A stretch of 64,000 nucleotides of DNA from Lacrimispora xylanisolvens. GTDB lineage: Bacteria; Bacillota; Clostridia; Lachnospirales; Lachnospiraceae. The stretch is taken from NCBI GenBank assembly GCA_017084465.1, contig CP070896.1, positions 744,001 to 808,000 of the forward strand, written 5' to 3'. The stretch's first letter is position 1. Each line of letters starts with the position of its first letter. The position numbers and the translations under genes are program-made. The notes under the pieces are model-generated. The model ran no database searches, was not told where the DNA came from, and worked only from the letters and a program-made list of their open reading frames with translations. Below are positions 9,203 through 27,777 of this stretch, piece by piece.

Positions 9203-9205
9203 ATT

Positions 9206-9973: not shown

Positions 9974-9987
9974 ATTCACTCTCCGTT

Positions 9988-11015
9988 TTATTTTAAATCC
10001 GCCAGCGCCTTCTTATATTTCTCATAAAATGTTTTTTCGTAGAATGATGACACGTCAACCTTTTGATCCAGTACGTTCAGCTCATAAAAGGAATCTGCAA
10101 CGTTTTGTTCTGAATGCACCACCTGATCGTCAATTCCCACAAAATGATATAAATAACCTCTGTCATCATAGGTTCTCTTTAAAAGATCATAAGCCTCATC
10201 GTACGTATTTCCGGTTGGCTCCGCCTGAATTTTAGCCCACTCTTTCAAGTGACCCTCTGCCCATTCATAACTCTTTTGCACTCTTGCAAAATAGTCTGCA
10301 ATTGCATCCACTTTTGCTTCATCTTTTAACACAGCATCTGATATCTCAAAAGGGAAGTTACCGGACAGAATATTTACTGCAGAGGCAATTGTAACTGCAC
10401 CATTGGCTTTTGAAGCGTTAATAGAGTTTCCATAGCTGGCAAATGCATCAATCTGGCCTCCTGTCAAAGCGGTGACACCATCAGCAGTTGTTATCTCAAC
10501 TGGTTCAATATCCTTCCAGGAAAGCCCTTCTTTTTTAACATTTCATTCAGGAAATAATGAGCCGTTGTATTTTTAATATAGCCCACCTTTTTTCCTTTCA
10601 GATCAGCAATTGACTTTATCCCTGATTTTTCCAGAGCAACTACTTCCTGATTCTGGGGACTGCTGCTGTTAATCAATACAATTTTAAAATTACCGCCGTT
10701 CTGTGCCATGGAGGCAGATATGGGGGGAATTTCACTGGTGCCTGTAAAATCAATCTGATCGGCTGCCAATGCTTCCATGCAGAGATTCCCTCCCTGAAAA
10801 ACAAAATACTCCACATCATATCCTTTAAAATCATCCAGTCCTGCTGCCTTTAATAATGCTTCGTGGTTTTTCCATCCGGTAATTCCATAGCGGAGGTGAA
10901 TTTTTTCCGAAGATGCCGGTACTGATTCAGCAGAAGCAGTTTTGCAGCCAGTTAAACCTACTGCCAGCAGAGCCGTCATAACACCCAATAGTCCATTTCT
11001 AAATCCTTGTTTCAT
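9988..11015 (-). CDS. ssuA: SsuA-like substrate-binding lipoprotein (frameshifted)
   Basis: Extracellular binding protein for the SsuABC-like importer. The N-terminus is a lipoprotein signal with lipobox LTGC at about residue 24. The family stretch continues through IHLRYGITGWKNHE and QIDFTGTSEIPP. The frame is lost in the minus-strand A run copied from the T6 run near 10532-10538. One extra A changes LKKKGFPGR to LKKEGLSWKDIEPVEITTADG, which joins TGGQIDAFASYG. The ligand (sulfonate, taurine, nitrate or another thio compound) cannot be told from sequence. Its start overlaps the end of the aminotransferase gene. Confidence 0.87.
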
Positions 11016-12125
11016 AATCGTTCATCCTCCTGCCAGTCTGACTCTCTGCTATTGTTTTCAGTACTTCGATTACTTTCTCATTCTCTTCATATGTCCCGAC
11101 TGAGACGCGGATCCAGCCATCAAGCCCAAACTCACCGGCATTTCTGACAATAATTCCATTTTGCAAAAACGTGTTGTCTACTGGCTTTTTCCCTGTTTGA
11201 ATGAGTAAAAAATTGCCGTTGGACCGGATATAGGGGAAATCCCAGTTTCTCCAGCTCTGTATAATACAGATTGAGGCCTTTTCTGTTATTATTCAGGACA
11301 GAATTTTTAAACGCCTCATCATCAAGGCTTACCTCAGCCGCCTTCTGCGCGGAAAAGTTCACATTGATGGGGCTTCTTACCCTGTTGATCCGCTCAATTA
11401 TTTCCTTGTCTCCAATTCCGTATCCGATACGAAAGGATGCCAGGCCATACAGCTTTGAAAACGTGCGGAGCAGAATTATATTTTTTATGCTCCTTAATTA
11501 AATCAACGGTATTAAAATAAGGTTCTTCGGTAAAATCGATATAAGCCTCATCAAGGACTATCAGTACATGCTTTGGAACCCTGTTAATAAAATCATTCAG
11601 CTGATCTTCGGCTAAAATAGTACCCGTTGGATTATTGGGATTACAGATCCAGATGATCTTGGTTCTTTCATTAATGATCTCTAAAATACGGTCTGTGTCA
11701 ATGATAAAATCCTTTAAAGGTACCATAACAGGCGTTCCATTCATCTGCAGCGTAACATTACGATACCAGCCAAAGGATGGATCTGGTATCACAGACTCCT
11801 CCCCTTCTCCCAGAAACGCATGTGCTGCCAGTGAAATCAGTTCAAAAGAGCCGTTTCCAAAAATCAGATTCTCAGATGGCACATGATGAAGGGCGCTTAA
11901 CCGTTCTCTTAATATGGTACAGTTTGGGTCCGGATAAAAAGCATACTGGCTGTTCAGCTCATTTAATACTGCTCCCACTCTGGCAGAACAGCCCATACGA
12001 TTTTCATTACCGGCAAGTTTTATAACCTGACTAAGGCCATACTCCCTTTTTATTGATTCCAGCGACTTGGCAGCCTGATATGGAGCTATTTTATCCACTC
12101 CGGACCGTTCTCTAACCATTGGCAT
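10999..12125 (-). CDS. HisC-like PLP-dependent aminotransferase (two frameshifts)
   Basis: Fold-type I aminotransferase resembling histidinol-phosphate aminotransferase. Recognisable are IKLAGNENRMG, the PLP-contact WICNPNNPTGT, VLDEAYIDF, and, after correcting an A run near 11480-11486, TFSKLYGLASFRIGYG with the Schiff-base Lys. A second correction in the CCCC run near 11238 restores GFPYIRSNGNFLLIQTG and an end near ETRI. It overlaps ssuA and the dehydrogenase gene. With no other his genes nearby, a role in processing a sulfur-containing amino compound is more likely than histidine synthesis (inference). Start ATG at 12125 behind GGGAGGGGG. Confidence 0.83.
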
Positions 12126-13223
12126 ATGCCCCCTCCCTTCCATACTTTTTTCACATATCCGTCAGCCTGATAGGCTGCATCAATCAGTGCCCGTTCATCC
12201 TCATAATCTGCCAGTATACGAATACCTCCAAATAACTCATAAATTCTGTCCGATATGGTCTGCAGCTTTTCTTCGGTCTGTTCGTATATGCCGATTTCTT
12301 CCAGGGTGAATGCAACCTTTAATTCCTGGAATCCTGATACAATTTCAGCAATTTGTGCCTCACTCTTTCGTTCCAGTATGGCCTGCATGATAAGCCCAAA
12401 CGCCACCAATTCCCCATGCAGCGTATCTCTGGTCTCTTTAATGATACGGGATGAGTGGTAAAATGGATGGGCAAATCCTGAAAATGCTTTTTCTCCCACA
12501 TAGCTTCCTACATTTCCTGCAAGAAAGATGATTGCATCTACAGTCTTAACGGTGTAATCATCAATGATATTTTCCTCTGCATTTTATTACTACTGTTCCA
12601 TATTCTTTCAAAAACTCAAATGCCAGCCGTGCAGTATTAATGGAATTTATGTAGGAAAAGTCAAGGATTTTGCTGTCATAAGAAACTGTTGTCTCATACC
12701 ATTTTGCAAGGGTATCAACAATGCCAGCCCTTAAATACCGGACGGGGGCACCGGCTAGAATATTCGTATCTGCAATCACTGCTTTGGGGGAATGATTATT
12801 ACGCCAGAACTGATCAAAATTACCTTCGTCTGTATAAAGAACAGATAACGCTGCCCAGGCTGCACAGGTTGCAGCAATTGTGGGGACTGATATGACTGGT
12901 ATATTGGCCAGGTCTCCGGCAGCTTTTGTTACATCCATGACTTTACCGCCGCCTATGGCTATGAATACTGATATATCGTTTTCTTTTGCCAGTTCTGCCA
13001 GCTCACCTGCTTTTTCCAGAGTGGGATAACCTTCGAACAAATACTCTGTGAGGTGAATCGATTGTGACTCCAGGCTTTCCGTCACAGCTTCCTTCGTGAC
13101 CTCTCTGGCAGTTTTCGACCAGATAATGAGTGCCTGCTTTCCATATTCTGAGACATAAGAGCCAAGGAATTCTATGGCGCCGGGTTCACTTATATAAATA
13201 TCAGGGGTTTTAATCTGCAGCAT
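12086..13223 (-). CDS. Glycerol-dehydrogenase-like (GldA/Fe-ADH superfamily) protein, frameshifted
   Basis: NAD(P)-dependent metal alcohol dehydrogenase fold. The nucleotide-binding stretch is IGGGKVMDVTKA, followed by SVPTIAATCAAW. Metal ligands fit GIVDTLAKWYE (Asp), GFAHPFYHSSR (His) and DTLHGELVAFG (His). The frame breaks at ATAAAATGC near 12585-12588; deleting one A gives VVINAEENIIDDYTVKTVDA and joins the C-terminal half. It lies between the cystine-type importer and the aminotransferase, suggesting oxidation or reduction of a hydroxyl/carbonyl intermediate of the imported compound (inference). The exact substrate is unknown. Confidence 0.82.
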
Positions 13224-13261: not shown

Positions 13262-14017
13262 CTATATGGAATAAGTGGGTTCCAGTGAGATGATTCTGGA
13301 TAAAAACTGTTTTGTCCTCTCTTCTTTTGGGTTTGTAAAGATTTCCTCTGGAGGTCCTTCTTCTACTACAACACCGCCATCCATAAAGATGACCTTGTCA
13401 GCCACTTCCTGAGCAAACGACATTTCATGAGTCACCACAATCATGGTAATTCCCTTTTCAGCCACTTTCTTAATAATCTCAAGTGTCTCCCCCACAAGTT
13501 CCGGGTCAAGGGCGGATGTGGGCTCGTCAAAGAGAATTACTTCCGGATCCAGGACAAATGCCCTGGCGATTCCAACACGCTGCTGCTGTCCTCCGGAAAG
13601 CTGGGAAGGATAATAATCATATTTATCTGACAGCCCTACCCAGTTTAACGCTTCCTTTGCCCGCTTCTGCGCAATATCCTTTGGAACACGTCTTGCTGTT
13701 ACCAGCCCTTCCATTACATTTTCAATTGCGGTTTTATTTGCAAATAAATTGTAGTTTTGAAAAACAAAGGAAGTTTTTCTTCTTATGGCAAGAATCTCTT
13801 TTTTTGAGGCTTTTTTAAAGTCAACCTGGATATCTCCCACAGTAAGTTCCCCGCTGTCAGCATTCTCAAGAAAATTAATACAGCGCAGCAGTGTGGTTTT
13901 CCCAGAACCACTTGGTCCCAGGATTACTACCACCTCACCATCTTTTACCTCAACAGAAACATCCTTTAGAACTTCCAGTTTGCCAAATACTTTTTTCACA
14001 TGCTTCACTTCAATCAT
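13262..14017 (-). CDS. Cystine-type amino-acid ABC transporter ATP-binding protein (TcyN-like)
   Basis: ATPase of a polar-amino-acid importer. Walker [11 protein letters not shown], signature LSGGQQQR, Walker [13 protein letters not shown] and switch THEMSFA are present. The stretch [26 protein letters not shown] is characteristic of the TcyN/TcyC group that takes up cystine and related sulfur amino acids. It overlaps the permease gene by eight bases. Its place in an operon with cysteine synthase and a Cys-codon leader supports a sulfur-amino-acid substrate. Confidence 0.9.
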
Positions 14018-14720
14018 AAAGATTCCTCCTGAATCTTCCGGTATGCTTTCTCAATATTTTTGCTAAATATTCAATCATGACTGTAAATATCCAGTATATC
14101 AGCGCAGCCGCCACATACCCCTCAAAAAATGAATAGGTTCTTGAGCTTGGAATCGTAGCTCCTGCAACGATTTCAATAATACCGATTGCCATGACTACGG
14201 AAGATGCCTTAATTAACCCAACCACATGATTGGTAAGCATTGGAATTGCAATGGGTATCATCTGGGGAAGGATTATCCGGTAAATCGTCTGTATCTTTGT
14301 CAGACCTACCGAATATCCGGCTTCATCCTGCCCTTTATCGATGGATAGCAGAGCCCCTCTTATGGCTTCTGATACGGAACATATTGCCGACAGACTGAGG
14401 GCGAATATTCCGATCCAGATCTGATCTACATCTGCAATTGTTCCTTTTAGATGCAGGAATGCTGCAAAATCATTATATTTCATCATAAAAATCAGATTGT
14501 ATATCATTAGTGCTACGATAATTGGAACTCCCTGATATACCGTAATCACGAAAGCAATGATTTTACAAAGCACCGGCACTTTATAAACCCGTATCAGGGC
14601 TGCCACCGTTCCAAGTACCAGACCCACACTAAGGGGAATAAACACCAGGCGCAGAGTATTGGGGAAATATTTCATTCCGTAAATAAAGCTTTCCATAAAG
14701 TTATTTATGTTGAAATCCAT
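14010..14720 (-). CDS. Amino-acid ABC transporter permease (TcyM-like)
   Basis: HisM/GlnP-type permease, 236 residues, with about five membrane segments and the EAA loop [23 protein letters not shown]. It overlaps both its neighbours by a few bases, so the four transporter genes form a translationally coupled block. Confidence 0.9.
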
Positions 14721-15439
14721 GGAGTCCCCTCTTTTCCGCCTGTTTTATTTACATTTGTGTAATCCAGCCTTTTGTTTAAGTACCAGAACAAAAGCCGGAC
14801 TGCCAGACTGATTATGATATAAATGATTACATCAAACACATACGCTTCCAAAACATGCTTCGTGGCTGATCCGATTGTTTTAGCCCTTCCCATAATATCT
14901 GTGACACCGATTAAAAAAACCAGTGAAGATCCCTGAAACAATCCCACCAGATCTGAACCAAAGGGCGGCAGGGCAACCCGTATCATCTGAGGCAGTATGA
15001 TTCTTATAAATGTCTGATAATGAGTCAGACCTACACTGAGACCAGCTTCCGTCTGACCATAGGGGATGGACGTCACCGCACTGTAAAAAATTACAGAAAG
15101 AAATGCTCCCTGGTTTAAAATAAACGTCACATAAGCAAACACAACTGCACTCCAGTCCCGGTTGATACTGGTACCCAAAAGGGGATCAATGATAGCGGGC
15201 AGACCGTAGTAAATAAGCATCAGCTGAACCAGCATGGGGGTACCCCGCATAAAAGAAATATAGATCTTACTGATCTGATAAAGCACCCGTATTTTCTTAA
15301 TCTGGATCAGCACAATGAATACCGCCAAAAGGACTCCGAAGATGGTCGCATAAAATACAATGGAAAAGGTCACCGTCAGATATGGAAGTATTTTAGGAAT
15401 ATTTTCAAAAAAGCGGCTCCATTCAAACAGTTTCCCCAT
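14705..15439 (-). CDS. Amino-acid ABC transporter permease (TcyL-like)
   Basis: Second permease of the same importer, 244 residues, with SFMRGTPMLVQLMLIYYGLP (typical of the family) and the EAA loop AGLSVGLTHYQTFIRIILPQM. Overlaps the following permease by 16 bases and lies six bases after the binding-protein stop. Confidence 0.9.
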   Translation of the reverse strand: MGKLFEWSRFFENIPKILPYLTVTFSIVFYATIFGVLLAVFIVLIQIKKIRVLYQISKIYISFMRGTPMLVQLMLIYYGLPAIIDPLLGTSINRDWSAVVFAYVTFILNQGAFLSVIFYSAVTSIPYGQTEAGLSVGLTHYQTFIRIILPQMIRVALPPFGSDLVGLFQGSSLVFLIGVTDIMGRAKTIGSATKHVLEAYVFDVIIYIIISLAVRLLFWYLNKRLDYTNVNKTGGKEGTPWIST

Positions 15440-15444
15440 ATCTC

Positions 15445-16264
15445 TTACTCACTTTCTGTATAATCACCGCCGATTACATCAATGGATAACTGTTTTAGTT
15501 TTCCGTCTTTCTTTAACTGCTTTAATGCCCCGTCAACTGCTCCCTGCAATTCGGTGTCTTTTTTGGAAAAAACAAAATATGTGGAAGAAGTCTGAACCGG
15601 ATCACCTGTTACTTTAAGAGCTGTTTTTCCATAATTTTTATTTAACTTATCTGCATCCCTCTTTGTCATAACTGTAGCATCCCACACTCCGTTTAACAGT
15701 CCGGTTATGGTCTCTTCATCTGTGGAGTTATTGACATATTCAATCTTTATGGGATTATCCTTATGATCTTTGTTATAAGTTTCCAATATGTAGGATGTAT
15801 TGGAACCGGCAGAACTCTTTACCTTCTTTCCCCTGTAAATCATCAAGGGACTTGATATCCGGATGATTCTCAGCCACAGTGATGTATGTGACATAGGTGG
15901 TGTAAGGCTCCTTTCCAAAGAGATACTTCTCATCCCGCTCCTTATTCCACTCATATTGATGGGCTGCAAGATCGATTTTTCCTGCATCAAGAGAGATCAG
16001 CACATTGGCGAAATCTGATGTTTTATATTCAAATTCGTACTGGGGGAGCAGATCATCCACTGCTTTTAATACTTCATATTCATAGCCTGCAAGATTTCCT
16101 TTGTCATCAAGATAGCAATAAGGCTCGTAGGAATTGCCGGTTCCCACCACGATCTTTTTCACTTTGCTCTCAGATGCCGCTTCCTTTTTTCCGCACCCTG
16201 CAAGCGCTGCCACACTTAATATGGTAAGCATCCATACTGCCGCAACATACTTCTTTCTTTTCAT
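15445..16264 (-). CDS. Amino-acid ABC transporter substrate-binding lipoprotein (TcyJ/K-like), frameshifted
   Basis: Binding protein with lipobox LAGC near residue 23 and a family 3 solute-binding fold: VVGTGNSYEPYCYLDDKGNLAGYEYEV, then the LISLDAGKIDLAAHQ hinge region. The frame breaks at GGGG near 15825-15828; removing one G turns LQGKEGKEF into LQGKKVKSSAGSNTSY, which matches the second lobe. The preferred ligand is probably cystine or a related thio amino acid, by analogy with TcyJ/TcyK and from context. Start ATG at 16264. Confidence 0.87.
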
Positions 16265-16289
16265 AATTGTCCTCATCCTTTCTTACTGC

Positions 16290-16706
16290 TTACTGTTTTG
16301 CGATGCCTTTTAAGGTCTGATGATGATCGGATCTGTAAAAATAAAGGGTTATTTTATCCAATACCTCATTTAAGCTTCCTGATATTTCAAATGTACTGAT
16401 GGTCTTTTTTTCAAATTGCTTCTGTATGGGAAACCCTATCTTTTTACATACAATACATCTGCAGTCTGAAAGGAGATCCACTTTCTGACTGACAGCTCCT
16501 GATCCATGACAGCCGCCTCCCCCGCCGCTGCAGCTCTGGCTGCCACAACCAGAAACATCTTCCTGTCCCTCCGGTACGCTTCTTTCTTCCAACAGCGCCA
16601 ATACTCCATCTTCATTTACTTCATAGATCAGAAATTGCTGTGCCGCTCCAAAGTTTAAATTGATCTGTTCCCCATCTTCTGAGGCTGCTGCAATTTTATA
16701 GGACAT
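16290..16706 (-). CDS. NifX/NafY-like cofactor-binding domain protein with Cys/Gly-rich insert
   Basis: Belongs to the dinitrogenase iron-molybdenum cofactor biosynthesis fold (NifX, NafY, NifB C-terminal domain). The start SYKIAAASEDGEQINLNFGAA matches the family opening, in which VAVAS and a HFG-type motif are usual; here the His is replaced (NLNFG). Between the two halves sits GCGSQSCSGGGGGCHGSG at residues 53-70, with three Cys and one His, a plausible metal or cluster site. It lies 18 bases after the NifK-like gene. Likely role: carry or insert a cofactor precursor for the nitrogenase-like enzyme (inference). Confidence 0.8.
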   Translation of the reverse strand: MSYKIAAASEDGEQINLNFGAAQQFLIYEVNEDGVLALLEERSVPEGQEDVSGCGSQSCSGGGGGCHGSGAVSQKVDLLSDCRCIVCKKIGFPIQKQFEKKTISTFEISGSLNEVLDKITLYFYRSDHHQTLKGIAKQ

Positions 16707-16723
16707 ATCATTTCCTCCCCTTC

Positions 16724-18031
16724 TTAAACTAGTTGAATCTTGTTTTTTGCAACGGAATAGATATCCTCAATGAGTTTAAGACCGCCTTCGTATCCTGTGT
16801 AATAGCTGTTCATGATCAGCCGTTCATTCACCGGCCATGATACATTTAAAAAATGAGCATTGGTCTGCTTTGCGACCTCCTTTTCCCAATGACCTCCTAA
16901 AATCAGGGGGTATCCATGATAGTCATGGGCTTTAATTTCATTGTGAATGTTAAATCCATCGGTATCAAAGCTGACTTCTGCCTCTATGTTGTAATTTAAG
17001 TCTTTGAAATAGGAGCGGACGTTTTCCTGATACTCTCTGGGTGTATCATCTACAACAAACTGCTTAGCCGGAAAAAGCCCCAGGTCATTAACCAGAAATT
17101 TTGTTATCCCCAGCGCATACTGGGCATCTGCCACTACGGTAAACTGCTTTGACATGACTCTGGTTTCCAGAAACAGATCTGCATAGCGTTCAATGTAGTA
17201 ATAGTAAGACGACTCTTCCTCTGATATAACCGCTTCCCACTTTTTCTTCCGGCACTCCCGCATATGTTCCGATTTCACGCAAGAATTTACTGGTTTCAAA
17301 TGCACCAATTGGAAGGGTTGGATAATGCAGATATGGAATTCCAAGCTTTTGCTCCATCTTCTTCATATTGGTAAGCCCCACCCATGGAGAGATTAATAAG
17401 TTAAACTCAGCCGCAGGAATCTTTTTAATATTCTCAATTCCCCGATTGTATCCGAATATAATGTTGGGGGTTAATCCCAGCTTTTTCACCAGTCGTTCCA
17501 GTTCCTTATAATTTCCATGCCAGAACTCATCCTGATAAGGGACGTCTGCCCAGATATTAACAAGCCCTTTAATTCTGATCTTAGATGGTTCCAAATACTG
17601 ATCCGTCAGCGCATCAATGACTTGTTCATGGCCTTTGTAGTTATTGCCCTTAAATCCGGCAGTTAAGGCATAAATCACAGGCTTTTCTTCATCCTTGAAT
17701 CCAGATACCACTTCCTCTGTGTTGTCTCCCACAATCTCCGGAATGCATCCGGTTAATACGACATATAAGTCTGCATCAATCACTTCAAGGGAGTGGCGGA
17801 TGGTGGATTCCAGCTTCTTTACTCCGCCAAAGACCACATCCCGCTCATTGATGCTGGTACAGGGATAAATATTGGGAGAGAAATATCCCCGGAGCTTCCG
17901 GTGGAACCGGATAGCTTCTGGGCACAGCCGGGTCCTGAATGAAGAACAGGAATTGCTCTTTCAATTGCCTGAACTGTCTGCATTGCACTCATTGCACATT
18001 TATATCTTTGTTTATCCAGAATTTTTGCCAT
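16724..18031 (-). CDS. NifK-like nitrogenase component 1 beta-type subunit (K1), two frameshifts
   Basis: Partner of the D1 subunit in a nitrogenase-like component 1. The P-cluster Cys equivalents are present: KCAMSAMQTV (Cys70), HSGPGCAQ (Cys95) and VVLTGCIPEIVGDN (Cys153). At about 435 residues it lacks the long N-terminal arm of NifK. Two corrections rebuild it. One G is needed near 17888-17891, restoring SGGYFSPNIYPCTSINERDVVFGG. One G fewer is needed near 17237-17240, restoring EEKVEAVISEEESSYYYY. The ATG at 18031 overlaps the D1 stop (TGATG) and has GAGGAGG upstream, so the pair is coupled. Confidence 0.88.
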
Positions 18032-19497
18032 CAGCTGATCGCCTCCTCTAAAAAATTTTCCAACTTCCTGCTGATACCACCAGTCGGTATAAGGCAGCTT
18101 CACCCTCTTTGCCAGATTCTGTTCAAAGCTTCGGTTGCGAATGGTATCTAAAATTGCATGAGCAAATTCCAGAGTATGTTTATAACCGAAAATCATATAC
18201 TCATCTGCCACATAAACAGCTGGTGTCCCCTGCTTGATTGCCCATACTGTGGAACCCGGATGTCTGGAAAGGTATAGATCCGGCCGGAATTTATTTAAAA
18301 TATTCATAACTTCAAAATTCTGCTGATCTGCCACGCTGGCTTCGAAATTAATATCATTTTCCAGAAGATAGCTCATGGCGGGCGGGATCTCCCCATTTTC
18401 ATACCGTTTGTCATAATGCCATGCCAGTGCCCATACCACTTCTATCCCCAGTTCGTTCAGCACTCTGGTCACTTCAAAGGTATAACCAGGTCCCATTCCA
18501 AGAACTGCCTTTAAGCCCTTTAATTCTTTTTTCACCGCCTCAATCTGAGGGATATAAATGTTTCTCTGCTCCTCAATATAGTGTTCTACCTGAGGCTGTT
18601 TTCCTGCAACTCTTCCGATTTCACGAAGCCAGGTTTCAAATCCGGTAATTCCAAGGGGGTTAATGGTCCTGATATAGGGAACTCCATAAACTTCCTCCAG
18701 ACCATTTCCCAGGTAATTTCCCAGCGTCCCGCAGATACAGGTGGTTGCAACCGCCTCTGATAGATGCTTCAGCTCTTCTACCGTAGCATTTGCATAGAGG
18801 AAAACCGGTTCCAGATCAAAATTCTGAAACATTTCTATGATTTCGTTTCTGGCACTTTCATAGAAATTTTTAAAATTAATGGTGTTTTGCTTTTTTCTGG
18901 GAGGCTCTACAATTCCGCTTAGAACAGCGTGATCGGAAATATCAAAGCCGGTAGCCCATATCCGGGATTTAAAGCCTTCGCAGTGGACTGCAATGACCGG
19001 CACTGGAATTGCTTCTTTCACTTCATCCACCACGCTGTCAATATCTTCTCCAATGATTCCTGTTGCGCAGGAGCTGCTGACAAAAATTGCTTTTGGATGA
19101 TACCGTCTGTTTACTTCAAGAATAATTTCCGTCAACGCATCCGTGGATCCAAAGATGGTATCATTCTCATCCATATCCGTTCCAATGTATACAGAGCTGT
19201 TAACCACGCCTCGTTTTGCCGCGACCTGATTGGTGACAATATATTGGGAACTGGCTGTTGCCGAACAGCCTGCCGGGCCATGATGAATGATCGCCACATC
19301 CCCCGGATTCCTCCAAGCTGGCCCAGTGCGCAGCCGGATAAACAGGTGCTGGACTGGGAAAAGCAGCGGCTGCATCCAGTCAGGGTCCCGCATTTGCTTT
19401 GACTTGCAAGGTCTTCTAAATCTCCCACATACCCGGTTATGGAACCCAACCGGTTCTCTCTGGTTCCAAGATTGGAACCTGATAACTGAAATGCCAT
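18031..19497 (-). CDS. NifD-like nitrogenase component 1 alpha-type subunit (D1), frameshifted
   Basis: Probable catalytic subunit of a nitrogenase-like reductase, about 488 residues. P-cluster Cys equivalents are SGCALGQLGG (Cys62), HHGPAGCSA (Cys88) and SSSCATGIIGEDI (Cys154). The cofactor ligands also align without gaps: Cys275 in CICGTLGNYL and His442 in FGYKHTLEF. By contrast, counting from CEGF, Gln191 is Trp and His195 is Phe, so dinitrogen reduction is unlikely. Five extra or shifted Cys (36, 42, 45, 52, 56) crowd the N-terminus. One G is missing in the run near 19304-19308. One T is extra near 18050-18055, which falsely fuses D1 to K1; with five T it ends GKFLEEAIS and stop. RBS GGAGG. 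Confidence 0.88.
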
Positions 19498-19524
19498 TTT
19501 TAAACCTCCATTTAACCTTATACT

Positions 19525-20508
19525 TTATTCAAACAGTTTGGTTGACAGGTAGCGAAGACCGGTATCAGCCAGAATGACCACAATATTCTTTCCTCTGTTT
19601 TCTTCCCTTTTCCCAATCTGAACCGCCGCATAAATGGCTGCTCCAGAAGAGGTTCCAACTAAAATCCCATCGGTTTTTGCCACGTCTCTGGCTGTTTCAT
19701 ATGCCTGGTACGTTTCCACCTCCACCTTTTCATCGTAGATGGAACGATCCATATTCTTTGGAATCCGTTCCTCCGGTACTCCTTCAAAAGGGTGAACACC
19801 GGTTATGTCGGGAGGAAACGGATCCGACTCATTGGGAAGAGACCCTGGCCCCGGCTGGATTGCAATAATCTTAAGATCCGGATTCTTTTTCTTTAGATAC
19901 TTACCTGCTCCTGACACGGTTCCTCCTGTGCCCACGCAGGCTACCAGTATATCCACCGCTCCATCAGTATCTTCCCATATTTCAGGACCAGTGGTTTGTT
20001 CATGAACGAACGGATTGGCTGGATTCTCAATCTGATTTACGAAGAAAATATTGCTTTCTTTGGACAAAACTTTTTCCTCAAGAACTTTAATCGCCGCCAC
20101 AAAATCGCCGCCTGTTTCATCAAGAACCGCTTTCACTTCTTTTACTTCTGAAAGCTTAATGGTTTCTCCTCCAAACGCTCTGATATTCTTAAACCGCTCC
20201 TCACTTACCTGATCCTGTATGTATACCCTGAACCCATAGCCTTTGCTGGCCGCTATGGCTGCCAGACCAATCCCAGTATTTCCGCTGGTTGTTTCCACAA
20301 TGGTATCACCGGGTTTTAAAAATCCTTTTTCCTCTGCATCCTCGATCATTGCTCTGGCAATTCTGTCCTTCACACTCTGATTGGGATTAAAATACTCCAG
20401 TTTTGCAATAATTTTCGCATTCAGTCCCAGCTTTTTTTCATAATTGACCAGTTCCAGAAGGGGTGTTTTTCCAATGAGTTCCGTAATTGATTGATGTATG
20501 GCAGCCAT
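19525..20508 (-). CDS. cysK: Cysteine synthase (O-acetylserine sulfhydrylase)
   Basis: PLP enzyme joining sulfide (or a thiol) to O-acetylserine to give cysteine (or an S-alkyl cysteine). Features: the start ITELIGKTPLLEL, the PLP Lys in NQSVKDRIA, the substrate loop TTSGNTGIG, phosphate-binding GTGGTVSGAG, and the C-terminal LVGTSSGAA and ADTGLRYLSTKLF. Length 327 is slightly above the usual 305-315. It is intact and sits between the NifH-like and D1 genes inside the operon. This strongly suggests that the product of the nitrogenase-like reaction, or of the importers, is a sulfide or thiol used for cysteine synthesis. The homocysteine-forming variant cannot be excluded. Confidence 0.93.
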   Translation of the reverse strand: MAAIHQSITELIGKTPLLELVNYEKKLGLNAKIIAKLEYFNPNQSVKDRIARAMIEDAEEKGFLKPGDTIVETTSGNTGIGLAAIAASKGYGFRVYIQDQVSEERFKNIRAFGGETIKLSEVKEVKAVLDETGGDFVAAIKVLEEKVLSKESNIFFVNQIENPANPFVHEQTTGPEIWEDTDGAVDILVACVGTGGTVSGAGKYLKKKNPDLKIIAIQPGPGSLPNESDPFPPDITGVHPFEGVPEERIPKNMDRSIYDEKVEVETYQAYETARDVAKTDGILVGTSSGAAIYAAVQIGKREENRGKNIVVILADTGLRYLSTKLFE

Positions 20509-20540
20509 ATAGATTCTCCTTTCAGATCTCGTAAACGTTT

Positions 20541-21414
<874 letters not shown>

Positions 21415-21418
21415 TCAA

Positions 21419-22706
21419 TTATAAATTGTCGTATAAATCTTCTATTAATGTTAAACTTCCCCTGTAACCGGCATAGGCTCTGTTAAAAATCAAACGATCC
21501 TTAATGGGGAATGCTGCAACAATATTCTGAACTTCTTTTAAAGAACTGACCTCCTCTTCATTGCTGCTTCCGATAATCAGAGAAATATCCTCCTGTTTTA
21601 AAAGTTCCTGATTGATCTCATACTGATCCGCACAGAATACAACTCTGGGCGGTTTGGCATATTCCAGTGTCATAAGTTCTGTGACAATTCTCTCTTTGTC
21701 TTCCTGTCTGAAAAGAGGCTCTGAAATAATGACAAGCACCGGCGTAAAACTATAGTCATTGGCTAAGTAGCGGGTAATTCCCACTGCTGTTGATCCGTCG
21801 GCGACTACGGCAAATTTCTTCCAGCTCAATGTTCCAATGGCCTGAGCCAGATACCGGTAAACATAAATCTCCTCTTCTTCCAGAACCTGATTTACCAGCC
21901 GGTCATCCAGCTTTAATGCTTCTGCTACTGCCAAGACAAAACGTCTGGTATCGCTGGCTCCGATTGGAAGTCCTGGATAACGGATATAAGGAACATGAAA
22001 TTTCTCTTCAAATCGTTCTGCAGGGCCTTTTAATATCCAGGGATGGATAATAATATTTAACGATGCTCTTGCACAGGACTTTATGGTTTCCATCCCCTGC
22101 TGTTCTGTAAAAAAAGTATTGACTTTAAGTCCAAGTTTTTTTAAAATGCGGGAAATCTCTTCTAAATTTCCACTCCAGAAAGGATCGTGGTATGGAATAA
22201 TTCCAAACAGATTAACAAGATTTTCTTCCTTTTCTTCCGTCGGCTCAATCACCTGGTCAATCATGGTATTCCATATTACTTCATAACCTAAATTGCTGTC
22301 TCCTGCAAATCCCGGAGTTTCAATGGGAAAAAACAGGGACACCCTTTTCTCTGAATTCAGTAGTTACGCTCATAATATCATCTCCTATAATACCTGCCGT
22401 ACAGCCAGTCAGTACAAAGTAGGCGTCTGCATCGATAATTTCAACCGCCCCCTCAATGGTGGTTTTTAGTTTCTGAATTCCTCCAAATACCACTTCACGC
22501 TCCAGCATATTACTGGACGGAATGGAAACGCTGCTTACAAAACTGGAACTTTTATTCCCGGACTGTCCCGGATCGGAAGCAGTTGTCTGCATACAGCAGC
22601 CCGGTCCTGCATGGTAAATGGGGCATACCCGGTTAAGGGCTCCCAAAACGGAATTGATTCCAGCCAGCACACAGCCCCCTCTGGGATTTTCTATCACCTG
22701 AGACAT
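21419..22706 (-). CDS. NifK/NifN-like subunit (K2), frameshifted
   Basis: Beta-type partner of D2. Conserved P-cluster-type Cys: RGGCVLAGINSV, YHAGPGCCMQ and FVLTGCTAGIIGDDI. The middle repeats the K1 plan (NLFGIIPYHDPFWSGNLEEI against VNIWADVPYQDEFWHGNYKEL), so K1 and K2 are clearly paralogues. The frame is broken at TTTTTT near 22330-22335; with five T, EKGVPVF runs into PIETPGFAGDSNLGYEV. The ATG at 22706 has GGAGG eight bases upstream within the end of D2. Together with D2 it may be a NifEN-like cofactor scaffold (inference). Confidence 0.86.
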
Positions 22707-22707
22707 C

Positions 22708-24153
22708 TCATTCACCTCCGATTATGTATTGAAATGGATCTTTTTCATACCAGCTCTCTTTATATGGAAGCTTTACATGCTGGGAAAGCTTAACGTTAAA
22801 GCCTGGATTTTCAAGCTGGTCTGCTATTTTATTTCCTAAAAACAAAAGCCCGTCATAGCCCATGGTAGGACGTTTCATATCAAGAACATGGGTTGTGGGA
22901 ATCCCAAGCTTTGCTGCCCACTCCGGTACACCGATAAAGACATCAGGTTTTAACCGTTTCACCAGATTCACCTGCTCGAAGGGCTGCATATTGGCAATAT
23001 CAATCACATAGTCCGAATGTATGGTATTTAAATATTCAATATCTGCCTGTGCGTCTTCATCGTAGGTCGGTGTCTCAAGCCCTACCAGCACCATACCAAA
23101 ATCATCAATCAAGGCCGCCGCTGCAAATGACCGGCCTGTTCCGCCGCAGATAAATACCCGTTTTCCCTTTAGCCGGTCTTTTATGGATTCCACTAAAGGA
23201 AGAATTCTTTCATGTTCTCTCTGAATAATTTCTTCTGCTTCTTTTTCTTTTCCAACAATTCCGGCAATTCCCCGAAACCAGATATCCGTGTTTCTTACAC
23301 CAATGGGCATAACCGTGTGGGAATAGGGTATCTTATAATCCTCATAAAGAGTCTTCATAAACTCATCTGCAAAAACCTTACAGATGGAGGTAGATGCCTC
23401 TGCAGCAGGGATTTCCTTTATTTTTTCCAGTGAACTGTAAAATGGAATATAGTTTACTTTAAGCTCCAGAAGGGACAGCATACGTTCCATCTCCTTTTGA
23501 TCGGAATAGCTGATGGATACGGGAGCAAATAAATTAATCAATCCTTTTTTCTTCTCCAGTTTTTCCTTTTTTAATATGTACTGGTTAATGGAAAGAAACG
23601 CTGCATCAAATCCGGAAGCACATATTTTGGATTTAAATCCTTCACAATGAATGGGAATGAGAAGAGCCTGTGTCTCTTCCTGCAATTTTCTTAAAATGGC
23701 ATCAATATCATCTCCGATAATACCGGAAGCACAGGAAGCAAATACAAAAATCAGCTTGGGGTGATAGCGGAGGGTTGCATCGGCAACCGCTTTCTTAAGC
23801 TTATCTTCACCTCCGAAGATTACATTGTTCTGATCCAGATTTGATACGATGATCCGTGGGTTTTTGATGTTTTTTACTCCCCGGTGCGCCTGCCCCACCC
23901 GGTACTGGTCCACGGCCAGAGAGGTACAGCCCACACACCCCTGAGGGGAATGGGCGATAAATACTGAATCCTCCAGTGACATAAGTGCTGCCATGCTGTT
24001 AATCTGCTGACATTGAAGCCCCTGGGCAAAGCTTCGGTCTGCCTTTTTTAAACAGCCGTTTTTAAAATCTTTCTCTGCCTGACTTCCTGTAGAACCCAGA
24101 TCGTTATACCGGTTTGGACGGCTTTCCCGGATTCCTGAATAATTTTCACTCAT
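22708..24153 (-). CDS. NifD/NifE-like subunit (D2), probable cofactor-scaffold alpha subunit
   Basis: Intact 481-residue paralogue of D1. Cys equivalents: LQCQQINSM (Cys62), SPQGCVGC (Cys88), FASCASGIIGDDI (Cys154), and Cys275 in SICKVFADEF. The position matching His442 is Gly (TMGYDGLLF against FGYKHTLEF). Loss of that His while the Cys is kept is the pattern of NifE, the maturation scaffold, compared with NifD. Gln191 and His195 equivalents are Cys and Phe in CEGFKSKICASGF. I infer that D2K2 matures the cofactor and passes it to D1K1. The alternative is a second catalytic enzyme sharing the same NifH. Confidence 0.85.
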   Translation of the reverse strand: MSENYSGIRESRPNRYNDLGSTGSQAEKDFKNGCLKKADRSFAQGLQCQQINSMAALMSLEDSVFIAHSPQGCVGCTSLAVDQYRVGQAHRGVKNIKNPRIIVSNLDQNNVIFGGEDKLKKAVADATLRYHPKLIFVFASCASGIIGDDIDAILRKLQEETQALLIPIHCEGFKSKICASGFDAAFLSINQYILKKEKLEKKKGLINLFAPVSISYSDQKEMERMLSLLELKVNYIPFYSSLEKIKEIPAAEASTSICKVFADEFMKTLYEDYKIPYSHTVMPIGVRNTDIWFRGIAGIVGKEKEAEEIIQREHERILPLVESIKDRLKGKRVFICGGTGRSFAAAALIDDFGMVLVGLETPTYDEDAQADIEYLNTIHSDYVIDIANMQPFEQVNLVKRLKPDVFIGVPEWAAKLGIPTTHVLDMKRPTMGYDGLLFLGNKIADQLENPGFNVKLSQHVKLPYKESWYEKDPFQYIIGGE

Positions 24154-24159
24154 GCTCTT

Positions 24160-24528
24160 TTATCCTTTCTCTTCTTTCTTAAATAAATTCTGGACTTCTA
24201 TATAGGAAAGAAGTCTTTGAACAGAATCCTCTATCAGTCCGGGCAATTCAAAGGCCCATGTTCCATTTTCTGCAAGAGCGGATCTGGCTCCTTCACCAAT
24301 TCTGCTTACCAGAACATAATCACAGTCTCCCAGTAAATCTGCCACTGTTCTTAGTTCCCTGTCATCGTGTTCCTGCTGTTTGCAGACTGGAGCCGTCGTT
24401 CTGGTCTCCTGATACCAAAAGGTTCTGTCAGAACTGTCTGCTTTTATAATGTGAAATTCTTCTGTTCTTCCAAAATGCTGATTGATTACCTTTCCGTCTG
24501 ACGATGCTGCTGCGATTTTGTAAATCAT
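24160..24528 (-). CDS. NifX-like cofactor-binding domain protein
   Basis: A 122-residue single-domain protein of the NifX/NafY fold. It opens MIYKIAAASSDGKVINQHFGRTEEF, with the usual His-Phe-Gly retained, unlike the other NifX-like protein in this operon. It ends in an acidic helix. Sitting directly after the NifB-like gene, it probably binds the cluster made by NifB for transfer to D2K2 (inference from NifX/NafY). Start chosen at the ATG at 24528 because the family start aligns there. Confidence 0.82.
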   Translation of the reverse strand: MIYKIAAASSDGKVINQHFGRTEEFHIIKADSSDRTFWYQETRTTAPVCKQQEHDDRELRTVADLLGDCDYVLVSRIGEGARSALAENGTWAFELPGLIEDSVQRLLSYIEVQNLFKKEEKG

Positions 24529-24551
24529 TGAAATCCAACCCTCTTTCACTA

Positions 24552-25423
24552 TCAGCCATGAGAAAATGTATCACTTCCCACAATCCTTCTTTGATATATT
24601 AAATCTCCATAATCCTTTCCACCCAGAAGCCCTACCGCATCTGCACGGCAATGCTGACAATGGCGGAAGACATCAATATGCTTTCCAGCCAGGGCTCTGG
24701 CCTCCTCAATCTGACTGCATACAGGAGCCTCTTCATTTCTTAAATCTGACTGGGGTATCAGCGGTATCAGATTATAAATATGTGCCCCTCTTTCTTTTAC
24801 AGCCCTGGCAATGTCTTCAATGTGCTCTCCGTTAATGTTTGGAACCAGCACGGTATTTACTTTGACTGTAATTCCCGCAGCCGCAATTTTTTCAATCCCC
24901 TTTAACTGGTTCTCGATTAAGATGGCAGCGGCCTCAACTCCGATGTATACTTTACCGTGGTAGATAATCAGGCGGTTAAGCTTTGCCTCGATTTCAGGAT
25001 CTACCCCATTCACCGTAACTGTTAAAGAATCCACTCCTGCTTCTATTATTTCTTCTGCCCGTTCAGAAAGAAGAAGTCCATTGGTGCTCATACATTTAAT
25101 CAAATCCGGGTACTTCTCTCTGATCAGTCGAAAGGTTTCCAGTGCATAATCCGTAGCCAGTGTATCGCCTGGTCCTGCTATTCCGGCAACGGTGATCTCT
25201 GGGCACAGCTTTAATGCTTTTTCAAGAACCCCCATTGCTTCCTGGGGTGTAAGTACCTGAGACGTTACTCCTGGTCGTTCTTCATGATCATTGATCTTTC
25301 TGTCACAGAATTTACAGGATATATTGCAACCAGGGCTTACGGGAAGATGAATCCTTCCGGTATTGTTTCTGTTTCCTCCAAAGCATGGGTGAAAACTTTT
25401 AGTTTCTGATATGTATCAGCCAT
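24552..25423 (-). CDS. nifB: NifB-like radical SAM cofactor maturase (frameshifted)
   Basis: In nitrogenases NifB uses S-adenosylmethionine to insert carbon and fuse clusters into the 8Fe core of the active-site cofactor. Here the N-terminal HPCFGG motif, the radical SAM motif CNISCKFCDRK (CX3CX2C) and ERPGV are read when one A is added at the A4 run complementary to 25397-25400. The body has VAGIAGPGDTLA, and the C-terminus HCQHCRADAVGLLGG gives the cluster-binding Cys pair typical of NifB. It lacks a fused NifX domain; two separate NifX-like genes are in the operon. First large gene of the operon. RBS GAGGT before the ATG at 25423. Confidence 0.9.
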
Positions 25424-25451
25424 CTTTACCTCACTTTCAAAAAATAATAAC

Positions 25452-25509
25452 AAAAAAGACAACCTTCGTCTGATATGCATGATTTTGCTTATCAGAACCT
25501 CCGGTTGTC
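25452..25509 (-). terminator. Intra-operon terminator between yezD-like gene and nifB
   Basis: On the minus strand GACAACC pairs with GGTTGTC and an inner TCTGATA pairs with TATCAGA, followed by a T6 run. It starts four bases after the small-gene stop and ends about 30 bases before nifB. It should limit transcription into the nitrogenase-like genes, or act as a second attenuator. Confidence 0.75.
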
Positions 25510-25512
25510 CAG

Positions 25513-25677
25513 TCAGTCCTTTAATCTTATTTTTTCATTTTTTTCAATCTGTACGATTTTCCCGTCTTGAATGGTTATGGTTATGGAACCATATTTTACA
25601 TCTCTCGCCATCTCATTGATCAGATGCAGGTAATCTTTATCCGATTTTGATGAATCTGCATAGGGTATAGGAATCAC
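25513..25677 (-). CDS. Small YezD-like (DUF2292) protein
   Basis: A 54-codon ORF ending DVKYGSITITIQDGKIVQIE followed by KNEKIRL. This matches the C-terminal signature of the DUF2292/YezD family, small proteins of unknown function that I recall being often encoded beside sulfur-assimilation genes. The start is uncertain: a GTG at 25677 is directly against a purine-rich RBS, and an ATG-AAA upstream is blocked by an in-frame TGA. A small indel is possible here as elsewhere in the window. It lies between the two terminators of the leader region, so it would be made even when the nif-like genes are off. Confidence 0.7.
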   Translation of the reverse strand: MIPIPYADSSKSDKDYLHLINEMARDVKYGSITITIQDGKIVQIEKNEKIRLKD

Positions 25678-25766
25678 CTTCTCTCATTTCATAATGGTTG
25701 ACTGGTGTTAGCCCCGGGCGGTATGCAAATGTTGTTGATCTGATTTTCTCATTAACATTTTTTTAT

Positions 25767-25796
25767 AAAAAAAACAGGTACAATAGAAGTACCTGC
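25767..25796 (-). terminator. Attenuator terminator downstream of Cys-rich leader peptide 1
   Basis: Minus-strand stem CAGGTAC / GTACCTG with a 7-nt loop, followed by eight T. The 5' arm CAGGTA (25790-25795) is also complementary to TACCTG at 25817-25822, two bases after the leader stop codon, giving a competing antiterminator. Confidence 0.85.
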
Positions 25797-25824
25797 CACC
25801 CCCTCAGTAACGGACTCAGGTATT

Positions 25825-25935
25825 TTAATGCATAGAAAAACAAACTGTATTCTTACACTCGAACTCAGCTTTACAACAACAACTCATCTGATATGTAAAT
25901 TGAAAATTCTTTGTATTAATTACAGAATTCTTCAT
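25825..25935 (-). CDS. Cys-rich leader peptide 1 (putative cysteine attenuator)
   Basis: A 36-codon ORF with a good RBS (GGAGAGG, ten bases before ATG). It contains five Cys, including three consecutive TGT codons at residues 19-21 (MSCCCKAEFEC), and Cys27 and Cys32. It lies between a consensus promoter and a terminator at the head of the nitrogenase-like operon. The expected logic is as follows. With cysteine plentiful, the ribosome reaches the stop codon and covers TACCTG, so the terminator forms. With cysteine scarce, it stalls about 50 bases upstream and the antiterminator can form. This is inference from known leader-peptide attenuators. I do not recognise a protein family. Confidence 0.8.
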   Translation of the reverse strand: MKNSVINTKNFQFTYQMSCCCKAEFECKNTVCFSMH

Positions 25936-25992
25936 ATGCTCGTTACCTCTCCTTTGCATTCCCTATTAAAGTTATATGTTAATATGCTTTGA

Positions 25993-26021
25993 ATTATAAT
26001 CTTATCTGATTAAGTTGTCAA
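25993..26021 (-). promoter_or_regulatory. Sigma-A promoter of the nitrogenase-like sulfur operon
   Basis: Minus-strand TTGACA (26016-26021), 17-base spacer, TATAAT (25993-25998): a perfect consensus promoter. It points toward leader peptide 1, about 55 bases downstream. No further gene lies between it and the SulP terminator at 26088. Confidence 0.85.
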
Positions 26022-26142: not shown

Positions 26143-27777
26143 TCACATGGCTTTTGCCATTAAAAGCGCCTCATCAATACATCCTGCCAGGTTTTCCCTA
26201 CCCACTGACTCCAAAAAAGCCCGCCCGCTCCATCATGGACATGGGCTGGTCATTAACATGGGATAAAATAAGGGTCACATGCTTTCTTTTTAAATTCTGA
26301 TTTAATTTTTCCAGACTTTTTAATGCAGTCGCATCCATAGCCGGAACACTTCTCATTCTAAGAATCAGAACCCGTTTCCCCTCTTCTATAATCAGCTGGG
26401 AAATCTTTTCCGCTGCCCCAAAGAACATGGGACCGCTTACTTCAAAGACTGCAACATGCTTTGGCACAGGTTTTAAGTCTATGGATTCGCTGCTGTTTTC
26501 TTCGTCCTCTAAGTACTTCCAGCTGCTTACTTCTGTCACGTCAGCCATACGTTTCATAAACAGCAGGGAAGCAAATAAAATTCCGACTGCAATGGCCGTC
26601 ACAAGATCAAATGCAACAGTAAATACAAAGGTCACTAGCAGAACGGACCAGTCACTCTTGGGTGCTGTCTTTATGATAGAAAGAAAGACTCTCCACTCAC
26701 TCATGTTATAAGCTACCATAAAGAGAATTGCCGCGATAGCCGGCATGGGAATTAATGCGGCATAAGGCATTAAAAATACTAAAACCAGAAGAAGCATCAC
26801 TGCATGAACCATGCCTGCTACAGGCGTTCTTCCGCCGTTTTATGTTTGCAGCAGTTCTTGCTATGGCTCCAGTGGCTGGAATTCCGCCAAAAAAGAGCGG
26901 AACAGATATTACCAGCGCCCTGGGCAACCAGCTCCATATTGGAATTATGTCTGCTTCCTACCATTCCGTCTGCAACTACGCAGGACAATAAGGATTCTAC
27001 TGCTGCCAGAACCGCTATGGTCACTGCATCCGGCATTACCTTTTGTACCATGGCAAGAGAAAATACAGGTAGATGAAAGGTGGGAAGATCCGATGATATG
27101 GTGTATAAATCCCCGATGGTATTTACCGGAAGATGAAACACTTTTACAAGACCCGCCGTAAAGATGACGGCAATCAGTGACGGCGGTATGGTTTTAAAAA
27201 ATCTGGGCCATACAATTAAAATGAGGAGTGCTGTAAATCCCACTGCAACAGCCATAGGATTTAAGGTACCAATGCTGTGTACCACCTCACTGACTTTTTC
27301 CAGCGTTTCGATCGGGGCATGCCCAAAGGTAAGTCCCATAAAATCCTTGATCTGACCAATGAATATGGTAACAGCGATTCCTGTGGTAAATCCTGTGGTA
27401 ATGGTATATGGAATGAAGCGGATCAGGCTTCCCATCCGCAAAAATCCCATAATAAGCAGAAAGATTCCTGCCAGAATAGTTGCCATAACCAGCCCGTCAA
27501 AGCCGTTTTTCGCTGCAATCCCTGCCACGATAGATGCAAATGCGGCGGTGGGACCTGCAATCTGAACCTTACTTCCTCCCAGAAAAGAGATGACAAAACC
27601 AGCTGTAATGGCGGTGTAAAGCCCCTGCTCCGGTGTAACACCGCTTGCTAATGCCAGGGCTATGGAAAGCGGAAGGGCAATAATAGCTACAATGATTCCG
27701 GAAACGAAGTCTTTTAAAAACTGCTCCTTCGTATAATGCTTCATTGATAAAAAAAACTGAGGTACCAAATCTTTCAT
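26143..27777 (-). CDS. SulP family anion (sulfate) transporter with STAS domain, three frameshifts
   Basis: Inner-membrane transporter, about 540 residues: a sulfate-transporter core with about ten membrane segments, then a cytoplasmic STAS domain (HVAVFEVSGPMFFGAAEKI ... RMRSVPAMDATAL). The core has the SulP motif GGSKVQIAGPTAAFA and TAANI near GGIPATGAIAR. Corrections are needed at T6 near 26888 and the A run near 26839. The T6 run near 26211-26216 needs one T fewer, which extends the end to ESVGRENLAGCIDEALLMAKAM. SulP proteins carry sulfate, bicarbonate or other anions; the sulfur-rich setting favours sulfate (inference). Confidence 0.87.

What the first reader, a model, noticed from the sequence alone, without database searches (positions are those of the whole stretch)
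16290..25423. Complete nitrogenase-like system (NifB, NifX x2, two DK pairs, one NifH) built around a cysteine synthase gene
Seen: NifB-like (CNISCKFCDR, CRADAVGLLG), NifH-like with both cluster Cys, D1K1, D2K2 and two NifX-like proteins, with cysK in the middle and sulfur-amino-acid and SsuABC-type importers downstream. Known: NifB and NifEN are needed only for complex 8Fe cofactors, and methylthio-alkane reductase (MarBHDK) is a nitrogenase-like enzyme releasing thiols from thioethers. Inferred: this is a cofactor-dependent reductase that cleaves C-S (or S-O/N) bonds of imported compounds so that sulfide or thiol can go to CysK. Two DK pairs and two NifX genes go beyond the described mar operon.
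Basis: partly seen in the sequence, partly recalled or inferred. Interest (0 to 1): 0.95.

Follow-up and report, generated by a model that had tools for sequence, protein, structure and literature searches.

The report
Cysteine-gated nitrogenase-like sulfur-scavenging operon
This bacterium carries a cluster of nitrogenase-like genes built around a cysteine-synthase gene and preceded by a short cysteine-rich reading frame that is predicted to switch the cluster on when cysteine runs short; it likely makes an enzyme that would cut carbon-sulfur bonds to supply sulfur rather than fix nitrogen, so relatives of its nifH-type gene are likely miscounted as nitrogen fixers in gut surveys.

Summary
The cluster is real: NifB, NifX, D2K2, H, CysK, D1K1, NifX and a cystine-type importer, all on one strand; six genes are frameshifted here but open in a congener. 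D1 and K1 match methylthio-alkane reductase (Mar) far better than nitrogenase, keep its P-cluster cysteines, Cys270 and Arg428-His429, and form a clade beside Mar, not inside it. The Fe protein is NifH-type. D2K2 is a more distant pair, missing from 4 of 11 congener operons; CysK is missing from 5 of 11. New here: a consensus promoter, a Cys-codon leader and a terminator-like hairpin precede the operon; the leader recurs in 10 of 10 congeners examined. CysK lies in 41 of 46 long D1 loci (Firmicutes, Spirochaetota, Bacteroidota) and in 0 of 7 canonical nif loci. In 18 of 24 D1 genomes no canonical nifDKEN was found and the only strong NifH is this type. Best reading: a sulfur-starvation operon whose D1K1-H reductively cleaves C-S bonds, feeding CysK; substrate unknown. 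Published gut Cluster III nifH ascribed to Butyrivibrio and Lachnospira is likely, at least in part, this gene. New variant of a known kind.

The parts
25993..26021 (-). promoter-like site TTGACA-17-TATAAT, 12 of 12 consensus bases
   Evidence: 4 promoter-like sites found in the region, 2.8 expected in shuffles; this is the only one with 12 of 12
25825..25935 (-). leader ORF, 36 aa with five Cys codons (SCCC...C...C), Shine-Dalgarno-like AGGAGAGG upstream
   Evidence: same kind of leader in 10 of 10 congeners examined
25773..25797 (-). terminator-like hairpin followed by a T run, 28 nt after the leader stop
   Evidence: 1 found, 0.4 expected in shuffles of the window region; recurs 17-34 nt after the stop in 16 of 19 leaders
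25513..25677 (-). DUF2292 small protein (OscA-like at low score)
   Evidence: PF10055 62.8 bits (cut-off 22); OscA NF033785 37.4 bits (below cut-off 85)
24552..25423 (-). NifB-like radical SAM protein without NifX domain; frameshifted near 25340
   Evidence: intact relative L034 matches NifB 7bi7 at 297 bits
24160..24549 (-). NifX1-type protein (PF02579)
22708..24153 (-). D2, second alpha-type subunit; lacks Arg428-His429
21419..22715 (-). K2, second beta-type subunit; frameshifted
   Evidence: intact L034 copy
20541..21390 (-). H, NifH-type Fe protein; frameshifted
   Evidence: (intact L034 copy)
19525..20508 (-). CysK-family PLP enzyme, below the CysK cut-offs (a divergent, possibly dedicated paralog)
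   Evidence: TIGR01139 313.9 bits, cut-off 350.95; linkage
18034..19497 (-). D1, alpha-type subunit, Mar-like; frameshifted, 3' end by comparison with L034 (approximate)
16724..18034 (-). K1, beta-type subunit, Mar-like; frameshifted, 5' end approximate
16290..16706 (-). NifX2-type protein (PF02579)
13262..16276 (-). cystine-type ABC importer: binding protein (frameshifted), two permeases, ATPase
   Evidence: present in 11 of 11 congener loci

Best explanation
This is a nitrogenase-like gene cluster, predicted to be induced by cysteine shortage, whose D1K1-H enzyme likely cleaves carbon-sulfur bonds of organic sulfur compounds so that the released sulfide or thiol would be captured by the CysK encoded in the middle. 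Shown by sequence: the gene content, the Mar-type P-cluster and cluster-ligand residues of D1K1, the NifH-type Fe protein, the Cys-codon leader with a terminator-like hairpin, and the recurrent linkage to sulfur genes. Inferred: NifB (with the NifX proteins as carriers) builds an [Fe8S9C]-type cluster; H passes electrons with ATP through the P-cluster to that cluster, held by the Cys270 and His429 equivalents; ribosomes stalled at Cys codons prevent termination; D2K2 is an optional second reductase sharing H and NifB. Untested: the substrate; S-substituted cysteines or methionine-derived thiols are candidates.
Against: CysK is absent from 5 of 11 congener operons. The leader was found in only 21 of 80 named loci, 15 of them upstream of the operon, though many loci are cut or start elsewhere. 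Antiterminator pairing is statistically weak. Cystine-type importer genes were seen in only 13 of 45 named loci with room. The linkage queries other than CysK were taken from the D1 loci themselves, which favours those loci. DUF2292/OscA and CymR matches are below NCBIfam cut-offs. Two rows of the D1 clade lack His429. No expression or activity data.
Confidence: 0.6

Rival explanations
1. D1K1-H is a genuine N2-fixing group IV nitrogenase like that reported for Endomicrobium proavitum (Nfa), with a minimal NifB-NifX assembly line.
For: NifB, H and all P-cluster and cluster cysteines are present. PMC11257099 and PMC9147875 (passages) cite 15N2 fixation by E. proavitum with only group IV genes. 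PMC4995403 (passages) reports 15N2 uptake by human faecal samples and says that other Clostridiales in that nifH clade keep the NifD histidine.
Against: D1 has Trp and Phe at the positions of NifD Gln191 and His195 and no His442 in loop II. It lies beside Mar in the tree. Neighbours are sulfur genes, which are absent from 7 canonical nif loci. The leader codes for Cys. The window genome has a separate canonical nif set.
Confidence: 0.1
2. D1K1 is a methylthio-alkane reductase in the strict sense, releasing methanethiol from methylthio-ethers for methionine synthesis.
For: Same ligands and fold as MarD; a MetQ-type binding protein in 8 of 46 long D1 loci.
Against: MarD orthologs (74-82% identical) exist separately in G213 and G090, and G090 also has a D1-clade pair. 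MarD His194 is Ile or Val in the D1 clade. The commonest linked acceptor is CysK; O-acetylhomoserine-sulfhydrylase-type genes lie near four Mar-side loci, and only 7 of 37 members of the related cluster in D1 loci have that length. The Fe protein is not MarH-type.
Confidence: 0.15
3. The enzyme reduces another kind of sulfur compound (sulfonate, sulfoxide, polysulfide or an S-N/S-O bond), like the isethionate reductase Isr in role but not in cofactor.
For: SsuA/SaoX- and TauC/SaoP-like importer genes near some D1 loci and an NMT1-type importer downstream in the window. Isr shows that group IV enzymes can act on sulfonates (PMC11423573).
Against: IsrD lacks two P-cluster Cys and the cluster ligands that D1 keeps (PMC11423573 section 12). 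The importer nearest to D1K1 is cystine-type in 11 of 11 congener loci.
Confidence: 0.12
4. D2K2 is a NifEN-like scaffold that finishes the cofactor for D1K1.
For: The best NCBIfam model for D2 is nifE (165.6 bits, below the cut-off 505). D2 lacks the Arg-His pair and has Cys at Trp195.
Against: 4 of 11 congener operons and 33 of 45 named loci with room have D1K1 without a D2 ortholog nearby. D2 and K2 match MarD and MarK better than NifE. MarDK needs only the unmodified [Fe8S9C] cluster (PMC12552129).
Confidence: 0.1

Closest known systems
Methylthio-alkane reductase MarBHDK of Rhodospirillum rubrum (PMC12552129; PDB 9fmg, 9d9u)
   Same: P-cluster Cys set, cluster Cys270, Arg428-His429, Trp195 and fold in D1K1; NifB homolog; sulfur role
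   Different: Sister clade (about 35% identity), NifH-type Fe protein, CysK inside the operon, Cys-codon leader, NifX genes and an optional second DK pair
Heliophilum fasciatum NflDK3 (PMC9147875, function unknown)
   Same: D1-clade pair, 49% identical, in a locus with several DK pairs and sulfur genes (assignment of G090 and of the numbers is my inference)
   Different: In another order of genes, without the D1K1-NifX-importer arrangement
Isethionate reductase IsrBHDK of Rhodobacter capsulatus (PMC11423573)
   Same: Group IV enzyme for sulfur assimilation with ABC importers nearby
   Different: Isr lacks most P-cluster and all cluster ligands, and its IsrB is not NifB-like
NfaHDK of Endomicrobium proavitum (cited in PMC11257099, PMC9147875)
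   Same: Group IV DK with a NifB-type assembly and no NifEN
   Different: Reported as a nitrogenase; no sequence was available here for comparison
Polycysteine leader attenuators of mycobacteria (recalled; listings only)
   Same: Run of Cys codons in a short ORF ahead of sulfur genes
   Different: Here with a Shine-Dalgarno-like site and a terminator-like hairpin, in front of a nitrogenase-like operon

Membership tests
Methylthio-alkane reductase (Mar) | P-cluster Cys set, Cys270 and Arg428-His429 of MarDK | tested here: met
   for D1; alignment for K1 (C32, C56, C121)
Methylthio-alkane reductase (Mar) | D subunit inside the MarD ortholog clade | tested here: not met
   sister clade; MarD orthologs at 74-82% exist separately
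Methylthio-alkane reductase (Mar) | MarH-type reductase | tested here: not met
   NifH 1cp2 458 bits vs MarH 289
Methylthio-alkane reductase (Mar) | Release of methanethiol and hydrocarbon from methylthio-alkanes | not testable with these tools
   biochemistry needed
N2-fixing nitrogenase (Nif/Vnf/Anf) | Gln191, His195 and His442 of NifD | tested here: not met
   Trp, Phe and no loop II His in D1
N2-fixing nitrogenase (Nif/Vnf/Anf) | NifEN in the same set | tested here: not met
   none in the cluster; canonical-scoring PF00148 genes are elsewhere in the genome
Isethionate reductase (Isr) | D subunit with one of three P-cluster Cys and no Cys275 equivalent | tested here: not met
   definition from PMC11423573 section 12
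Nfa (group IV-A, Endomicrobium proavitum) | Clade with E. proavitum NfaDK | tested here: inconclusive
   no E. proavitum sequence; Heliophilum NflD1, described as its clade-mate, falls on the Mar side (L066/L166 type), not in the D1 clade
NifEN-type scaffold (for D2K2) | Required wherever D1K1 is made | tested here: not met
   D1K1 often without a D2 ortholog nearby
Leader-peptide transcription attenuator | Conserved short ORF rich in regulatory codons before the operon | tested here: met
Leader-peptide transcription attenuator | Intrinsic terminator shortly after the leader | tested here: met
   16 of 19 leaders (as a predicted hairpin; not tested in vivo)
Leader-peptide transcription attenuator | Competing antiterminator | tested here: inconclusive
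   in 7 of 15 leaders a CCTG-ending motif just after the stop can pair with the hairpin's 5' arm, but z over the 15 is only +1.2 to -2.1

The most novel reading that the evidence does not exclude
A large clade of gut and rumen bacteria run a nitrogenase-cofactor desulfurase that strips sulfide from organic thiols and thioethers for CysK under cysteine starvation, giving off hydrocarbon gas (for instance methane if the substrate is methanethiol); its NifH is the Cluster III nifH read as evidence of nitrogen fixation in the mammalian gut.
Probability: 0.3. Interest if true: 0.95.

Novelty: new variant of a known kind. Interest (0 to 1): 0.82.

Why it matters
If right, nitrogenase metal clusters serve routine cysteine supply in common gut and rumen anaerobes, possibly with a hydrocarbon by-product where methane budgets matter. 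It also gives a concrete reason to recheck nifH-based claims of gut nitrogen fixation: in 61 genomes of the genus of Butyrivibrio hungatei (G440), 33 carry a strong nifH-type gene and none a PF00148 gene scoring like canonical nif. The Cys-codon leader makes the sulfur hypothesis directly testable with a reporter.

Tried and rejected
Rejected: N2 fixation as the main role (residues, tree, neighbours, separate nif set); D2K2 as an obligatory scaffold (often absent); D1-K1 as a natural fusion (separate overlapping ORFs in L034). Rfam gave one weak hit over the leader region (snoR15, E 0.11, below its gathering score), taken as chance. NCBIfam has no model for three leader peptides tested and Pfam none for the one tested. 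A search of the own genome for the Cys-run pattern gave 4 hits against 4 for the reversed-pattern control; one is this leader, two lie inside other genes and the fourth, in a 147-codon open frame, was not followed, so no wider regulon is claimed. I could not obtain Endomicrobium proavitum NfaD. A genus search centred on the Lachnospira MAG by locus id was not accepted, so Lachnospira multipara was not examined.

Rows dropped before counts. One search counts only loci with enough contig on the relevant side (68, 65, 55, 58, 76, 70, 56 or 45 of 80). Its 'two or more CysK' counts tblastn hits, which can be pieces of one gene. One search uses the 46 of 80 named loci of at least 19 kb; its control is 7 canonical nif loci (own genome plus the 6 of 24 genomes with canonical nif), and its queries other than CysK come from D1 loci. 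In one search, L043 (a second DK region of G009) and the distant L046-L048 were left out. The 91 loci include three genomes fetched twice (L036/L081, L040/L079, L045/L080). In one search, L044 was left out because its upstream end is cut. The 80 named loci are the best 80 of 488 confirmed, so they lean to close relatives. Completeness is not reported for the genomes, and several are MAGs, so absence of canonical nif there is not proof.
Full report
What is there. The minus strand of 13262-26021 reads, 5' to 3': a TTGACA-17-TATAAT site (26021-25993), a 36-codon leader with five Cys codons (25935-25825), a terminator-like hairpin (25797-25773), a DUF2292 gene, NifB, NifX1, D2, K2, H, CysK, D1, K1, NifX2 and a four-gene cystine-type importer. 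Six of these genes are frameshifted in the window and open in the congener L034.

Relation to known group IV sets. G090 has a contig of 145157 bases, where the Heliophilum fasciatum figure range in PMC9147875 (passages seen) ends at 145,155, and its Mar pair lies near an end of another contig, as described there; I therefore take it to be that organism. By gene order, its NflDK3 is the D1-clade pair (49% to D1), NflDK5 is Mar (82% to MarD), and NflDK1, which that paper proposes as its nitrogenase, is of the Mar-side L066/L166 type and lies between an O-acetylhomoserine-sulfhydrylase-like gene (480 bits, cut-off 495) and CysK (487 bits, cut-off 351). D1 is thus neither a Mar ortholog nor in the clade of the proposed Heliophilum nitrogenase. 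Isr is excluded by its missing cysteines (PMC11423573, section 12 part 1 and passages seen).

Fe protein. H is closest to C. pasteurianum NifH (458 bits) and much farther from MarH (289). In a 30-row quick tree, 18 operon-type H proteins group together (90) apart from six canonical NifH (99); five further H proteins of Nfl or D1 loci lie outside both.

Regulation. A leader with clustered Cys codons precedes NifB in the window and 10 of 10 congeners examined, and in neither of two distant loci. Over 91 loci such ORFs outside long genes occur on the sense strand in 31 and on the antisense strand in 3; for the 80 named loci alone the numbers are 21 and 3, and 15 of the 21 lie 1.7-5.7 kb upstream of D1. 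So most named loci gave none; many are cut or begin with other genes. A terminator-like hairpin follows 17-34 nt after the stop in 16 of 19 leaders examined, with differing stem sequences (no shuffle control; for the window alone 1 found, 0.4 expected). Antiterminator pairing is possible but weak. The DUF2292 gene resembles OscA only below cut-off.

Sulfur linkage with a control. In the 46 named loci of at least 19 kb, tblastn finds CysK in 41, a cystathionine-gamma-lyase-type gene in 26, a PatB-type C-S lyase in 24, a CymR-type regulator in 15, a NifS-type gene in 9, a MetQ-type protein in 8 and a cystine-type permease in 14; in 7 canonical nif loci all are 0. Names come: PatB is over its cut-off (446 of 340); CymR (138 of 195), NifS (527 of 531) and the others are below. 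A LysR regulator in 23 of 80 loci has no sulfur assignment. CysK lies within 1.5 kb 5' of D1 in 53 of 68 loci with room. Against this, CysK is absent from 5 of 11 congener operons (L036, L037, L039, L040, L045). The operon CysK scores below the CysK cut-offs, while CysK of two other Nfl loci scores above, which suggests a dedicated paralog.

Distribution and the nifH issue. D1 was found in 12 of 25 genomes of the window's genus, own included. The 80 named loci (best of 488) are in Lacrimispora, Butyrivibrio, Ruminococcus and other Lachnospiraceae, Treponema, Bacteroidales, Propionispira and Megamonas, many from rumen or gut. Of 24 of these genomes searched whole, 6 have sets of PF00148 matches at 342-428 bits, as in canonical NifDKEN; the other 18 have none above 281.2 bits and exactly one NifH above 400 bits, 85-95% identical to the operon H. 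In 61 genomes of the genus of G440 (Butyrivibrio hungatei), 33 have a NifH-type match at E 1e-60 or better and none a PF00148 match above 302.3 bits; 13 of the 61 have a D1 at 78-79% identity, the rest of the DK genes being other Nfl types. PMC4995403 (passages seen) ascribes human-gut Cluster III nifH to Clostridiales including Lachnospira and Butyrivibrio, with metagenomic sequences 94-98% identical to theirs. That these are operon-type H genes is my inference; I did not have the OTU sequences. That study also reports 15N2 uptake, has Klebsiella as another source, and states that some Clostridiales of the clade keep the NifD histidine, so true diazotrophs may be among them.

Literature. Searches for nitrogenase-like with cysteine synthase, Clostrid and methionine (5 papers, 3 listed), nitrogenase-like with rumen, sulfur and Butyrivibrio (0), NflDK/NflHDK/MarDK/marBHDK (23 papers, 20 listed), nifH with rumen, Butyrivibrio and cluster III (1) and methylthio-alkane reductase (12 papers, 9 listed) showed, in their listings, no description of this operon or its leader. 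The library holds open-licence papers only.

Verdict. A real, conserved, sulfur-linked variant of the group IV nitrogenase-like enzymes with likely C-S reductase activity, an unknown substrate and a clear regulatory prediction.

Noticed in passing
L049:7424-13521 (G000, contig C1 from 2706000): A third nitrogenase-like set in the window's genome: an H-type gene and two short PF00148 genes, one with the usual Cys and one seemingly without, beside FecCD-type permease and ABC ATPase genes (read by eye).
   Followed up: no
L159:8372-14618 (G090, taken to be Heliophilum fasciatum): The DK pair proposed there as a nitrogenase (NflDK1) sits between an O-acetylhomoserine-sulfhydrylase-like gene and CysK, with H and NifB following; this context argues for a sulfur role.
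   Followed up: partly
   Followed up: no
L170:9052-10527 and L048:6151-7620: Two D1-clade proteins have Arg-Ala or Arg-Gly in place of Arg428-His429, so the cluster ligand may differ there.
   Followed up: no
L141, L142, L143, L154 (Bacteroidales): D1K1 with CysK and, in some, MetQ/MetI importers but no H or NifB within the operon; the single strong H lies roughly 14-17 kb from D1.
   Followed up: partly
window 8450-13223: Downstream on the same strand: an NMT1-type ABC importer, an aminotransferase-like gene and a glycerol-dehydrogenase-like gene. By reading, similar dehydrogenase and aminotransferase ORFs lie next to a D1-clade D gene in G406 (L164:10299-12872).
   Followed up: no
window 26198-27777: A SulP/DauA-type transporter gene, split by a frameshift, lies just upstream on the same strand.
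   Followed up: no
G437-G460 and genus of G440: Many D1-bearing gut and rumen genomes have a nifH-type gene but no PF00148 genes at canonical-nif scores, which matters for nifH surveys.
   Followed up: yes
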